A program made the position numbers and the translations under genes. This document shows, one piece after another, positions 2,829 through 54,472 of a DNA stretch of 57,430 bases. Location of the stretch: the NCBI GenBank assembly GCA_017625535.1, contig JAGAKR010000006.1:1-57430 (forward strand), in the 5' to 3' direction. The DNA is from Bacteroidales bacterium. Its GTDB lineage: Bacteria > Bacteroidota > Bacteroidia > Bacteroidales > UBA932. The stretch's first letter is position 1; every line of letters begins with the position of its first letter. The notes below the pieces were generated by a model that had not been told where the DNA came from, made no database searches, and worked only from the letters and a program-made list of their open reading frames with translations.

Positions 2829-2878
2829 GGCCGCAAAACTGTCGGGAAGAAGAGCTTATAAACTGAAAATTTGGAGAA

Positions 2879-3901
2879 ATGAAAAATATAGTTGTAATTG
2901 GAGGTGGTCCCAGCGGACTTGAGGCAAGTGCCAACCTGCATAAAATGGGCTACAATGTAATTCTGGTGGAAAAGTCCCCAGCCCTTGGAGGTCACCTGGC
3001 CAAATGGGACAGGCTGTTTCCGCAAGGCATCCCTGCAAAGGATGTGCTGGAGGGGATGATATCCAATATAAACGGAGTCAAATATTTCCTTAATGCAAAT
3101 GTGCAGAGCATAAACGCCCTTGGAAAATCATATAATGTCATTCTGGACAACGGCATTACCGTACTGGCGGATGCAGTCCTTTTTGCCACCGGTTTTGACC
3201 TCTTTAAAGCGGAGAAGAAAGAGGAATACGGATACGGCATTTACGAAAGGGTAATTACCAATGCAGACCTTGAGAACTGGTTCAGGACAAAAGAGGACAG
3301 CAGAGTTGCAAACAATCCCAAAAGGATAGGTTTTGTACACTGCGTGGGTTCAAGGGATGAGAAGGCCGGCAACAGATACTGCTCCAAAGTATGCTGTGCA
3401 ACCGCTGTAAAACAGGCCTGCGAGATAAAACAGGAGTTCCCGGATGCAGAGGTGTTCTGCTTCTATATGGACCTTAGAATGTTTGGAAGGGGTTACGAAG
3501 ACCTCTATCTTTCTGCGCAAAAAGAATACGGAGTAAGATTCATCCGAGGAAGGGTTTCAGAAGTGGCTGAAAACATAAACAAGGAACTTGTTGTAAAGGC
3601 AGAGGACACTCTCAGCGGCAAACCTATCAAAGTTACTTTGGACCTGCTGGTACTTATGGCCGGAATGCAGAATTGCAGTGCCGGAGCAAAGGTTGCCGGC
3701 CAGATAGGAGTTGCCGGAATGGAAACAGACGGATTCTTTGAAACAAAAGACACCATATATTCGCTTCAGCAGAGCAACAAACCGGGAGTTTTCTTTGCAG
3801 GAGCCTGCACAGGCCCCAAGACTCTTCCCGACAGCCTTCACGAGGCCCGTGCCGCTGCCCTGGCCATCCACAACTACCTTCAGGAGGGTGAAAAAAGATG
3901 A
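2879..3901 (+). CDS. Short HdrA-like FAD-binding oxidoreductase
   Basis: A 340-residue flavoprotein with an N-terminal dinucleotide-binding fold (GGGPSG at residues 8-13), a second FAD contact ATGFD at 103-107, and the HdrA-typical cysteine cluster HCVGSRD...YCSKVCC (Cys155, 168, 172, 173). It matches the FAD core of HdrA but lacks the ferredoxin-like inserts and C-terminal 4Fe-4S region that bring full HdrA to about 650 residues. A C-terminal GACTGPKTLPDS segment closes the FAD site. It is presumably the flavin entry point of the complex encoded here. Its TGA overlaps the ATG of the next gene (ATGA), implying translational coupling. Whether it can bifurcate electrons cannot be read from the sequence. 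Confidence 0.8.
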   Translation: MKNIVVIGGGPSGLEASANLHKMGYNVILVEKSPALGGHLAKWDRLFPQGIPAKDVLEGMISNINGVKYFLNANVQSINALGKSYNVILDNGITVLADAVLFATGFDLFKAEKKEEYGYGIYERVITNADLENWFRTKEDSRVANNPKRIGFVHCVGSRDEKAGNRYCSKVCCATAVKQACEIKQEFPDAEVFCFYMDLRMFGRGYEDLYLSAQKEYGVRFIRGRVSEVAENINKELVVKAEDTLSGKPIKVTLDLLVLMAGMQNCSAGAKVAGQIGVAGMETDGFFETKDTIYSLQQSNKPGVFFAGACTGPKTLPDSLHEARAAALAIHNYLQEGEKR

Positions 3902-4227
3902 TTATGGGAAAATTCGGATTTGCCTTGAGCCCCAGTTCCAGAATCAATCTGGACGAAGTAGACAAAGTAAAATTTGCAAAACTGGTTGAAATTGAGCCGG
4001 ATGTACTCAAATGTATGGCATGTGGAAGCTGCACCGCCAGCTGCACTGCCGGAAAATTTGTAAAGACCAGCATGCGCAGCGCCATCCTGGCCCTCCAGAA
4101 CGGAAAAAATGAGGACGCAATAAACTTCCTCAAGGGATGCCTTCTGTGCGGCAAATGCACAATGGTATGCCCAAGGGCCATAAACACACGCCATTTGATA
4201 ATTTCAATACTCAAAGTATATCAATAA
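3898..4227 (+). CDS. Second HdrC-like dicluster ferredoxin
   Basis: A 109-residue protein with two CxxCxxCxxxC motifs (Cys 39/42/45/49 and 81/84/87/91) that should bind two [4Fe-4S] clusters. It overlaps the HdrA-like gene by four bases. Two in-frame starts exist (3898 and 3904); the first gives the coupled ATGA junction. It is shorter than the HdrC copy at 1060-1755 and may serve as the dedicated link between the HdrA-like flavoprotein and the membrane protein encoded next. Having two unlike HdrC proteins in one operon suggests two electron exits. Confidence 0.8.
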   Translation: MIMGKFGFALSPSSRINLDEVDKVKFAKLVEIEPDVLKCMACGSCTASCTAGKFVKTSMRSAILALQNGKNEDAINFLKGCLLCGKCTMVCPRAINTRHLIISILKVYQ

Positions 4228-4238
4228 GTTACGATGAA

Positions 4239-4278
4239 GTCGTATCACGATTGTACTTGTAGTCGTGTCACGATTGTA
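4239..4278. repeat. Tandem repeat of 23-bp period with palindromic core
   Basis: Two copies of GTCGTrTCACGATTGTA (4239-4255 and 4262-4278) differ at one base and are spaced by exactly 23 bp. The second contains the perfect inverted repeat TCGTGTCACGA and the units are linked by ATTGTACT. It fills the gap before the membrane Hdr-like gene. A second array of 23-bp period lies at 44851-44896. Confidence 0.7.
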
Positions 4279-4289
4279 AAATAAATATT

Positions 4290-52339: not shown

Positions 52340-52366
52340 AAAAGGGGATGATTAATCCCCTTTTTT
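52338..52366. terminator. Terminator identical to the one at 46851
   Basis: AAAAAAGGGGAT and ATCCCCTTTTTT with the same five-base loop as 46851-46879. It starts inside the stop codon of the regulator gene and is bidirectional toward the convergent oxidoreductase gene. Confidence 0.85.
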
Positions 52367-52370
52367 ACTT

Positions 52371-53336
52371 CTACCAGCCGAATGGATGCCTGCACAATGG
52401 AAACTTAGCCAGCGGATGATAATCCCCAACAAGCCCCACAGGAGTTGCATCATTGATATCATTCACAATCTGGATGCAGTTGCGGGCCTCTGAAATTCTG
52501 AACCCTTTCCCTGCAAGGATATTCTCATAACTGCGGGTATGCAGTTCTGTAAATCCGGCACTGAACTCAAACTCGCTGCCGTCTATCATAATGGTACGGT
52601 AAGTACGCTTCTCTCCCTGAACCGCATTTGCAGGAAGATGGTCTGCATTTATGCTCAAAAAATACCTTACACGGGCCTTTTTCAACTCCAGGAATCCTGC
52701 CACCCTGTCGTGCGATTTAACGTGCACAATGTTCTTCTGCACCGGACCGAATATCCACTGCAGCATATCATAAAAATGCACACCTATATTGGTTGCCACC
52801 CCGCCGCTCTTGCGCTCATCCCCTTTCCAACTGGTGTAATACCAGTTTCCGCGCGATGTTATATAAGTGAGGTCCACATCATAAACTTTATCTGCCGGAC
52901 CGTTGTCAATCTTCTCCTTAAGGGCCACAATTGAATCGTGGAGCCTCAATTGCAGTATGTTGTAGGCACAGCACCCAGTCTCCTTCTCAATCTGCTCAAG
53001 GGCATCAATATTGCGTGCCTTAAGCACCAGCGGCTTCTCACAAATCACATTTGCCCCCAGACGCAAACCATAGCGTACGTGTGCATCGTGCAGGTAGTTT
53101 GGGGTACATACCGATACAAAATCTATCTTGTCGGGAGTACTCCTCAATTTGGTGCAGTGTCTGTCAAACAGTTCCTGCTGTGTAAAGAAACTGGCCTGCG
53201 GAAAGAAACTGTCCATAATCCCCACACTGTCAAACGGGTCATATGCCGCAACCAGATTGTTTCCCGTATCTTTAATGGCTTTCAGATGGCGCGGAGCAAT
53301 ATATCCTGCCGCACCTATAAGTGCAAAATTCTTCAT
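52371..53336 (-). CDS. Gfo/Idh/MocA-type nucleotide-sugar oxidoreductase (WlbA/WbpB-like)
   Basis: A 321-residue NAD(P)-dependent dehydrogenase. The N-terminal [17 protein letters not shown] is the cofactor fold, VICEKPLVL the Gfo/Idh/MocA EKP motif, and [20 protein letters not shown] the catalytic helix. It resembles WlbA/WbpB, which oxidise UDP-GlcNAcA at C3. The adjacent aminotransferase fits that route to diamino-uronic acids of surface polysaccharide. The open frame begins at 53372; ATG 53336 (MKNFALIG) clears the upstream gene and is preferred. No other polysaccharide genes are in view. Confidence 0.82.
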
Positions 53337-53341
53337 ATCCT

Positions 53342-54472
53342 TTATCTGTAAAATGCTTTTATAGCCTTGCAAATATAATGTAATTGTTCCTCTGTAAGTT
53401 CTGTATGCATAGGCAAAGACAACACTCTTCCCGACAACTCCACGCTGTTTTCCAATCCCCCCACAATCACTCCCATATCCTTATATGCCTCCTGATGATG
53501 AAGCGGCAGCGGATAATAAATCATTGAAGGAATCTCCCTCTCTGCAAGAAATTCTTTCAAGGCATCCCTCCTGCCGTCCCTCACCTTAAGGGTGAACTGA
53601 TGGTATACGTGTGTTGTATAATCTGCTGTAACCGGAAGTTCTATTCCCTCCACTGAGGCAAGTTCCTGCAGGTAATAGTCTGCAGCAGACTGTCGGGAAG
53701 AAATATACTCATCCAAATATTTCAGTTTCACATCCAGCACCGCTGCCTGCAGGGTATCCAGGCGCGAATTGCACCCTATTATGCTGTGGTGGTACTTCAC
53801 CTTCTGGCCGTGGTTTGCAATGCAGTGGAGCCTCTGTGCAAGTTCTGCATCATTTGTGGTCATTGCACCTCCGTCTCCAAAGCACCCGAGGTTCTTTGAA
53901 GGGAAAAAGGATGTGCATCCCACATTGCCTATTGTACCGCTCTTAGGGTTCTCCCTCCCCTGCAGCACACCTTTCCACTGTGCCCCTATTGCCTGGGCAT
54001 TGTCCTCCACCACATACAGGTTATGCTTTGCCGCAATCTCCATAATGCGCCCCATATTGGCACACTGTCCGAACAGATGCACCGGCACAATGGCCTTTGT
54101 GCGGGGAGTAATGGCCTCCTCTATCTTCTGGGGATCTATATTGAATGTATCCCACTCCACATCCACAAGCACAGGCACAAGCCCAAGGAGTGCAATTACT
54201 TCTGCGGTTGCCACATATGTAAAGGCAGGAACAATTATCTCATCTCCTCTCTGCAGTCCAAGCGACATTAGGGCAATCTGCAGTGCATCAGTACCGTTTG
54301 CACAGGTAATTGCGTGCGCTGCCCCTGTATATCCAGCCAGATTGGCGGAAAAATCCCTACATTTGGCACCGTTTATGAACTGTGCTGCATTTATTACGTT
54401 CTGCATTTGGGCATCAACCTCATCCTTAATTTTAAGGTATTGCCCAACCAGATCAACCATTTTAATGTTCAT
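53342..54472 (-). CDS. DegT/DnrJ/EryC1/StrS aminotransferase (WlbC/WbpE-like)
   Basis: A 376-residue sugar aminotransferase. The PLP lysine is in [15 protein letters not shown], with [19 protein letters not shown] and EDNAQAIGA at the cofactor pocket. It probably converts UDP-3-keto-GlcNAcA to the 3-amino sugar together with the following Gfo/Idh/MocA enzyme (5-base gap). Start chosen at Met4 of the open frame (54472); 54481 is also possible. A TATCTTTG -7 box at 54495-54502 lies only 30 bases upstream on the minus strand, overlapping the start of the divergent VanZ-like gene. Confidence 0.85.

What the first reader, a model, noticed from the sequence alone, without database searches (positions are those of the whole stretch)
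2841..53701. TCTTCCCGAC: a strongly over-represented 10-bp word, equal in both orientations
At least 14 exact copies (7 per strand) and about 32 copies of the core TCCCGAC were read, against about 0.1 and 5-7 expected. It occurs in several reading frames and between genes, so amino acid usage alone does not explain it. The equal orientation differs from Chi or KOPS words, which are strand-biased, and resembles DNA uptake signals of Pasteurellaceae and Neisseriaceae. A cinA gene lies in the window. It is rare in the 13-26 kb operon. I know of no such word described in Bacteroidales.
Basis: partly seen in the sequence, partly recalled or inferred. Interest (0 to 1): 0.75.

Follow-up and report, generated by a model that had tools for sequence, protein, structure and literature searches.

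The report
Strand-aware DNA word in gut Bacteroidales
An uncultured group of gut bacteria carries hundreds to more than a thousand copies per genome of a short DNA word, spelled differently in sister lineages and spaced apart on each DNA strand separately, which looks like a self-recognition mark for DNA exchange or repair that I could not find described in this phylum.

Summary
TCTTCCCGAC occurs 14 times in the window (7 per strand; 0.05 expected) and 259 times in the genome (reversed-word control 6). Synonymous-codon shuffles leave about 1 of 56 coding copies. It is the core of a longer graded motif. Within the genus 11 of 39 genomes carry 19-279 copies; in an order sample no other genome exceeds 27. 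Relatives carry related words, TCVCGAYAG (785-1424 copies in three genomes) and CTCNGCGAY (728-1311 in ten): dialects. There is no replication-strand bias. New here: same-orientation copies avoid each other within about 1 kb, opposite-orientation copies do not clearly do so; words of similar abundance, other short direct repeats and E. coli Chi do not. Best reading: a DUS-like self-recognition word read on one strand (0.45); a Chi-like word of AddAB is the main rival (0.28). ComEC and DprA are present, no secretin was found, and five genomes with ComEC, DprA and AddB lack all three words. The reader protein is unidentified.

The parts
2841..2850 (-). full word TCTTCCCGAC, outside my ORF calls
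3823..3832 (+). full word TCTTCCCGAC, in ORF 2879-3901 (+)
5501..5510 (-). full word TCTTCCCGAC, in ORF 4290-6212 (+)
12660..12669 (-). full word TCTTCCCGAC, in ORF 11325-12719 (-)
20070..20079 (+). full word TCTTCCCGAC, in ORF 19299-20645 (-), MutS domain V protein
31345..31354 (-). full word TCTTCCCGAC, in ORF 30034-31722 (-), peptidase M28
32132..32141 (+). full word TCTTCCCGAC, in ORF 31776-33545 (+)
35363..35372 (-). full word TCTTCCCGAC, in ORF 35238-35945 (+)
38189..38198 (+). full word TCTTCCCGAC, in cinA ORF 37038-38312 (+)
41083..41092 (-). full word TCTTCCCGAC, in short ORF 40825-41175 (-)
45300..45309 (+). full word TCTTCCCGAC, in ORF call 44884-45750 (-)
45850..45859 (+). full word TCTTCCCGAC, outside my ORF calls
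53426..53435 (+). full word TCTTCCCGAC, in ORF 53342-54481 (-)
53692..53701 (-). full word TCTTCCCGAC, in ORF 53342-54481 (-)
330..336 (-). core TCCCGAC only
1695..1701 (+). core TCCCGAC only
5399..5405 (+). core TCCCGAC only
5603..5609 (-). core TCCCGAC only
6951..6957 (+). core TCCCGAC only
11922..11928 (+). core TCCCGAC only
12072..12078 (-). core TCCCGAC only
20259..20265 (-). core TCCCGAC only
21292..21298 (+). core TCCCGAC only
26699..26705 (+). core TCCCGAC only
32873..32879 (+). core TCCCGAC only
42428..42434 (-). core TCCCGAC only
42602..42608 (+). core TCCCGAC only
44641..44647 (-). core TCCCGAC only
47733..47739 (+). core TCCCGAC only
49023..49029 (-). core TCCCGAC only
53130..53136 (-). 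core TCCCGAC only
55054..55060 (-). core TCCCGAC only
57248..57254 (+). core TCCCGAC only

Best explanation
TCTTCCCGAC is the core of a genus-specific self-recognition word that works like a DNA uptake sequence: a protein prefers DNA carrying it during uptake or recombination, so copies accumulate and persist genome-wide. The word appears to be read on one strand or in one direction, because each orientation is spaced independently. Shown: genome-wide enrichment, independence from codon usage, dialects, lack of replication-strand bias, conservation, same-orientation exclusion. Inferred: that a reader exists, that it acts in uptake or recombination, and that it reads one strand.
For: 259 copies against 6 for the reversed word. 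56 coding copies against 1.13 in synonymous shuffles, and in species G034 63 against 1.08 for TCCCGACAG. Near-equal strands in every dialect: 133/126, 714/710, 664/647, and 233:225 (G034) and 129:153 (G000) for G-rich against C-rich strand. Long graded motif, with T-rich flanks on both sides in G034. Three words across the genus. In G034, 18 convergent pairs within 30 bp against 2.5 expected; 11 of the 18 are palindromes and 15 lie outside ORF calls, and 120 of 458 sites lie outside ORF calls, where 9% of the sequence lies. This resembles the overlapping USS pairs reported for H. influenzae (PMC7811141 section 19). 29 of 48 aligned core sites unchanged at 75.5% identity, against 20% of other 7-mers and 14.3% of permuted words. 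ComEC and DprA domains in 38 of 39 genomes each.
Against: No secretin in 39 of 39 genomes. DUF5689, from the Riemerella transformation screen, was not found in G000 or G034 and does not track the word. The four ComEC ORFs read are 363-445 aa with the Competence domain only; lengths of 417-872 aa are reported for competent strains (PMC6299819). ComEC and DprA also occur in five genomes that show none of the three words by whole-genome count (G008, G015, G019, G030, G035). Same-orientation-only exclusion is not predicted by orientation-blind uptake (PMC1939737 passages report no effect of orientation on uptake). The excess of close convergent pairs is absent in G000 (2 against 1.2). Competence is unknown in this uncultured genus.
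Confidence: 0.45

Rival explanations
1. A Chi-like word: the AddAB helicase-nuclease, entering at a DNA break, reads the word in one direction and switches from degradation to recombination. Each orientation then matters only to enzymes coming from one side, which would give independent spacing on the two strands. Dialects would follow changes in AddAB.
For: AddB-type nuclease in 38 of 39 genomes, next to a RecB/AddA-like helicase in the loci examined. AddAB diverges fast (AddB 29-33% identity to G000 in six dialect C genomes, where the neighbouring gene, read in five of them, is 56-58%). Same-orientation exclusion with no clear opposite-orientation effect.
Against: No leading-strand bias, whereas E. 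coli Chi is 108:36 in my 600 kb, and E. coli Chi shows no same-strand exclusion (35 pairs against 20.8). The motif spans about 13-17 informative positions, longer than known Chi words (recalled: 5-8 nt). Five genomes have an AddB hit but none of the three words by whole-genome count: G008, G015, G019, G030, G035. AddAB and neighbour-gene trees agree, so co-variation with dialect is uninformative.
Confidence: 0.28
2. Another strand-aware chromosome function: a DNA-binding or translocating protein for replication restart, repair or chromosome organisation uses the word in each orientation about every 2.7-3.2 kb.
For: Per-strand regular spacing (CV 0.73 and 0.75 against 0.98 in G034; 0.78 and 0.84 against about 1.0 in G000) and alternation of neighbours (299:150 and 176:101). 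Present on both strands irrespective of gene strand in the per-20-kb table.
Against: No candidate protein was identified. Dialect changes within a genus, and no other genome above 27 copies of the 10-mer in the order sample, are unusual for a core chromosome function; but other words in those genomes were not sought.
Confidence: 0.22
3. Restriction-modification or methylation signature: the word is over-represented because a methylase protects or uses it.
For: Other over-represented palindromes exist in the genus (CACGTG and CTTAAG in G000, ATCGCGAT in dialect C).
Against: The word is not palindromic, its motif is graded rather than sharp, and avoidance of restriction depletes sites rather than enriching them (general knowledge). 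Methylases were not searched for.
Confidence: 0.04
4. Artefact of codon or dipeptide usage, or of repeated elements.
For: Strong frame preference (Pro-Asp and Ser-Gly).
Against: Synonymous shuffles give 1.13 against 56. CCCGAC is used for 128 of 357 Pro-Asp pairs against 23.6 expected. Flanks beyond the motif carry little information, so it is not a repeat family.
Confidence: 0.01

Closest known systems
DNA uptake sequence (DUS) of Neisseriaceae and its dialects
   Same: Hundreds to more than a thousand copies per genome, equal on both strands, related words (dialects) in relatives.
   Different: Different phylum and sequence; no secretin found; uptake untested; same-orientation exclusion, of which I saw no report in the passages read.
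Uptake signal sequence (USS) of Pasteurellaceae (H. influenzae)
   Same: Core plus AT-rich flank (USS flank recalled), no orientation bias, close inverted pairs (in G034), relatively even spacing.
   Different: Flanks are T-rich on one strand on both sides in G034; uptake untested; spacing is regular for each strand separately. I could not run the same test on a USS genome.
Chi sites of RecBCD/AddAB (E. coli GCTGGTGG measured here)
   Same: Over-represented oriented word; AddAB-type genes present; exclusion fits a reader that moves in one direction.
   Different: No leading-strand bias, longer motif, same-strand exclusion that E. coli Chi lacks.
KOPS / architecture-imparting words (FtsK)
   Same: Oriented short word genome-wide.
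   Different: Those are strongly replichore-biased (recalled); this one is not.
HIP1 of cyanobacteria (GCGATCGC)
   Same: Very abundant genome-wide word of unsettled function (partly recalled).
   Different: HIP1 is palindromic; this word is not, and its two orientations behave independently.

Membership tests
DNA uptake sequence (DUS/USS) | Strong genome-wide over-representation beyond codon usage | tested here: met
   (codon test for dialects A and B only)
DNA uptake sequence (DUS/USS) | No replication-strand or orientation bias | tested here: met
   233:225 (G034), 129:153 (G000), leading strand inferred from GC skew; 133/126
DNA uptake sequence (DUS/USS) | Close inverted pairs between genes | tested here: inconclusive
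   Met in G034 (18 convergent pairs within 30 bp against 2.5, 15 of 18 outside ORF calls), not in G000 (2 against 1.2). Hairpin folding and terminator function not tested.
DNA uptake sequence (DUS/USS) | Competence machinery: ComEC and DprA | tested here: met
   38 of 39 genomes each, but ComEC has the Competence domain only in the four read
DNA uptake sequence (DUS/USS) | Secretin uptake pore (type IV pilus route) | tested here: not met
   PF00263 in 0 of 39 genomes; control rings in 6 of 14. Other pilus genes not searched.
DNA uptake sequence (DUS/USS) | Preferential uptake of DNA carrying the word | not testable with these tools
   needs a cultured strain
Chi site (AddAB/RecBCD) | AddAB or RecBCD present | tested here: met
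   PF12705 in 38 of 39 genomes; neighbouring AddB- and AddA-like genes
Chi site (AddAB/RecBCD) | Leading-strand bias | tested here: not met
   E. coli Chi 108:36 as positive control
Chi site (AddAB/RecBCD) | Enzyme response to the word in one orientation | not testable with these tools
   needs purified enzyme
KOPS/FtsK-orienting word | Replichore bias | tested here: not met
Codon-usage artefact | Disappears against synonymous shuffles | tested here: not met
   56 observed against 1.13
Methylation / restriction word | Cognate methylase or modification at the word | not tested
   no methylase search or modification data

The most novel reading that the evidence does not exclude
A new kind of genome-wide word: neither a canonical uptake sequence (orientation-blind) nor a canonical Chi (replichore-biased), but a self-DNA mark read on one strand, maintained independently on the two strands with a same-orientation exclusion zone of about 1 kb, and with fast-evolving dialects within one genus of Bacteroidales.
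Probability: 0.3. Interest if true: 0.9.

Novelty: new variant of a known kind. Interest (0 to 1): 0.73.

Why it matters
Uptake words with dialects are known to me only from Neisseriaceae and Pasteurellaceae (recalled), and my searches found none described in Bacteroidetes. A second origin in an abundant gut phylum, in genomes where no secretin was found, would bear on the open question of whether such words spread by biased uptake, by selection for recombination among kin, or by another reader. The same-orientation exclusion is a simple statistic that can be run on any DUS or Chi genome and could separate readers of one strand from readers of double-stranded DNA.

Tried and rejected
Codon or dipeptide usage: rejected. 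Repeat family or mobile element: rejected, flanks carry little information. Generic loss of short direct repeats as cause of the same-strand exclusion: rejected; other 9- and 11-mers show direct repeats in excess, not deficit. In that test motif-containing words at 30-250 bp were not short of direct repeats in G034 (12 direct, 9 inverted for 9-mers; 11 and 3 for 11-mers); the 11-mer pairs come from three places with longer repeats. Exclusion as a property of common words in general: rejected; words of similar abundance average 1.25 (595 7-mers, G034) and 1.27 (202, G000), and the three lowest in each set are subwords of the motif. Directional 'coverage' models, in which convergent or divergent pairs should also repel: not clearly supported; divergent pairs dip a little at 100-500 bp (26 against 33.7 in G034, 11 against 18.0 in G000; each bin z -0.7 to -1.4), convergent pairs do not. 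Replication-strand words (KOPS): rejected. DUF5689 as the uptake partner: does not track the word. AddAB co-variation: uninformative, since AddAB and neighbour-gene trees agree. I had first read G002 (few words; AddAB without the usual neighbour gene, long branch) as a hint for Chi; on checking, that neighbour is also missing beside AddAB in G017, G021 and G022 and G014 has a longer branch though it carries 371 copies of the dialect C word, so I dropped it and moved Chi from 0.30 to 0.28. Naming the genus: not achieved; the nearest named records are MAGs called Bacteroidales bacterium, three of four with a ruminant hindgut site in the title.

Weaker points told in full: the exclusion is weaker in dialect C (same 0.80, opposite 1.24 at 30-1000 bp, pooled over five genomes) and in two further dialect A species (0.61 at 30-1000 bp but 0.83 at 30-500 bp, 68 sites). 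If one site of each close pair is kept instead of dropping both, alternation falls to 242:154 in G034 and 142:105 in G000. Gene calls in scripts are simple longest-ORF calls. Conservation counts pool alignments to several species and are not independent. Several genomes were sampled by only 3-40 kb; 'none of the three words' rests on whole-genome counts, which cannot exclude a fourth word (G035 shows weak CTATCGC).
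Full report
1. Observation. TCTTCCCGAC occurs 14 times in the window, 7 per strand, against 0.05 expected; TCCCGAC occurs 33 times against 2.5. In the whole 2.18-Mb assembly (88.6% complete) there are 133 + 126 copies, and 2 + 4 of the word read backwards. In 457 kb of the genome (400 kb fetched plus the window) it is the top 10-mer even under a fourth-order model (63 against 1.8).

2. Not codon usage. Shuffling synonymous codons within each of 389 ORF calls (100 times) leaves 1.13 copies on average (max 4) against 56 observed; for the core, 19.5 against 210. 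Of 357 Pro-Asp pairs 128 are written CCCGAC (23.6 expected), and 116 of these follow a T. Inside genes the core sits mostly in two frames, as expected if only some amino-acid pairs tolerate it.

3. Motif. A matrix learned from the 457 kb gives 282 sites at 12.5 bits or more (20 in the reversed sequence): T at -6, non-G at -4, T at -3, C/A at -2, T/C at -1, TCCCGA, C or T, then two purines. In species G034, held as a single 2.23-Mb contig, 620 kb give 458 sites (16 in the reversed sequence) of TC[C/G/A]CGA[C/T]AG, with graded T-rich flanks from -12 to -3 and at +10, +12 and +13.

4. Distribution and dialects. Of 39 genomes of the genus, 11 carry 19 to 279 copies of the 10-mer and 28 carry 0 to 11. 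TCVCGAYAG occurs 1424, 866 and 785 times in G034, G010 and G001 (reversed controls 60, 66, 34); it overlaps the first dialect, so eight genomes rich in the 10-mer also score 200-556 (controls 52-73), and some others are weakly enriched (for example G029, 266 against 61). CTCNGCGAY occurs 728 to 1311 times in ten genomes (controls 67 to 120) and 371 times in G014 (control 35). Five genomes (G008, G015, G019, G030, G035) show none of the three words above about 1.4 times the reversed control, apart from 9 one-strand copies of the 10-mer in G015. In the order sample of 295 genomes, which holds no other member of the genus, G000 has 259 copies of the 10-mer and the next has 27; other words were not sought there. 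Short samples of four named MAG relatives carry the word. The words share a [C/G]CGA[C/T] core. Dialects largely follow clades in trees of AddB, AddA and a neighbouring gene, built with 20, 19 and 15 genomes; an exception is G010, which I had labelled A in the trees and which groups with the A genomes there, but carries mainly the G034 word by count (866 against 55 copies of the 10-mer).

5. Strand and spacing. There is no bias to the G-rich (putative leading) strand: 233:225 in G034, 129:153 in G000. The full word is equal with respect to coding strand (28:28 in G000; TCCCGACAG 32:31 in G034); the bare core in G000 is not (129:81). Each strand is spaced more regularly than random (G034 CV 0.73 and 0.75 against 0.98; G000 0.78 and 0.84 against about 1.0), and neighbours alternate in orientation (299:150, 176:101), also after pairs closer than 200 bp are dropped (221:123, 136:83) or thinned to one (242:154, 142:105). 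The pair correlation shows why: same-orientation pairs are missing at short range (G034: 3 against 24.3 at 100-250 bp, 10 against 40.4 at 250-500, 50 against 81.2 at 500-1000). Opposite-orientation pairs are not, apart from a small, not significant dip of divergent pairs; G000 shows the same. For TCCCGACAG at 30-500 bp there is 1 same-orientation pair against 16.2, and 19 opposite against 17.1.

6. Controls for the exclusion. Words of similar abundance have a same-strand ratio (30-1000 bp) of 1.25 (sd 0.42, 595 7-mers, G034) and 1.27 (sd 0.27, 202, G000); the core has 0.37 and 0.53, second lowest in each set, and the three lowest words in each set are motif subwords. Other short direct repeats are in excess, not deficit. 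E. coli K-12 Chi, measured the same way in 600 kb, is strand-biased (108:36) and shows no exclusion (ratio 1.68, against a mean of 1.53 for 109 control words). The effect is weaker in dialect C (0.80 same, 1.24 opposite) and in two more dialect A species (0.61, 68 sites).

7. Selection. In 106 kb of alignment to other dialect A genomes at 75.5% identity, 29 of 48 core sites are unchanged, against 20.0% of other 7-mers and 93 of 651 (14.3%) permuted words (site-alignments, not independent sites). In G034, 120 of 458 sites lie outside ORF calls, where 9% of the sequence lies, and so do 15 of 18 close convergent pairs, 11 of which are palindromes.

8. Possible readers. ComEC and DprA domains are found in 38 of 39 genomes each, but the four ComEC proteins read are 363-445 aa with the Competence domain only. 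PMC6299819 (passages) says that this profile dominates Porphyromonadaceae and gives 417-872 aa for competent strains. No secretin was found in 39 genomes. DUF5689, implicated in Riemerella transformation (PMC8459023, passages), occurs in 21 of 39 but not in G000 or G034. An AddB-type nuclease is in 38 of 39 genomes, with a helicase partner beside it in the loci examined. None of these separates genomes with and without a word.

9. Interpretation. Copy number, strand equality, length and graded flanks, dialects, close inverted pairs in G034 and conservation together resemble uptake sequences most closely. The independence of the two strands argues for a reader of one strand or one direction; this fits a Chi-like word, or an uptake or recombination step that acts on single strands, better than orientation-blind binding. 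The missing strand bias and the contrast with E. coli Chi argue against a canonical Chi. I therefore commit to 'works like an uptake sequence, read on one strand' at 0.45, with Chi-like at 0.28. I do not file it as a DUS, because the secretin pore was tested and not found and uptake was never shown.

10. Literature. Searches for the word itself (no paper), 'uptake signal sequence' with Bacteroidales (no paper), 'DNA uptake sequence' with Bacteroidetes (listings only) and a broad one (poorly constrained) gave no description of such a word in this phylum; one search listed five papers, three of them with Neisseria in the title, none of which I opened. Passages were read in PMC1939737, PMC2397512, PMC7811141 (section 19 whole), PMC8459023 and PMC6299819.

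Noticed in passing
window 13282-24027 (-): Lysine-fermentation type operon: D-lysine 5,6-aminomutase subunits, lysine 2,3-aminomutase, CoA transferase, acyl-CoA dehydrogenase, ETF alpha/beta, and a MutS-domain V protein. The word is sparse in it and its continuation to 25943 (3 of 33 core copies, p 0.047), which might reflect later acquisition.
   Followed up: partly
L001-L020 and window (genome G000): Palindromes CTTAAG (330 against 149) and CACGTG (122 against 45) are also over-represented; cause unknown.
   Followed up: no
L032, L050-L053 (G003), L041, L054-L057 (G026), L128 (G013): Palindrome ATCGCGAT / TATCGCGA is over-represented in dialect C genomes and in G013, perhaps a fused inverted pair of the dialect word.
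   Followed up: partly
L040, L068, L069 (G021): A different word, CCGTCGAG (13 against 0.9), with CACGTG (24 against 3.2), in 60 kb; AddB of G021 is sister to that of G017, which keeps the dialect A word.
   Followed up: no
L181 (G002): AddAB lacks the usual Na+/H+ exchanger neighbour and sits on a long branch in a genome with at most two-fold enrichment of TCVCGAYAG (106 against 53); the neighbour is also missing in G017, G021 and G022, so this may mean nothing.
   Followed up: partly
L046 (G015): ATCTGAAC repeated 29 times in 14 kb (32 in 34 kb sampled), apparently a local repeat rather than a genome-wide word.
   Followed up: no
L115, L113, L117, L134: Short ComEC proteins (363-445 aa, Competence domain only), each beside a gene that reads like a diacylglycerol-kinase-type lipid kinase (my reading of the sequence, not searched); function in an uncultured genus unknown.
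   Followed up: partly
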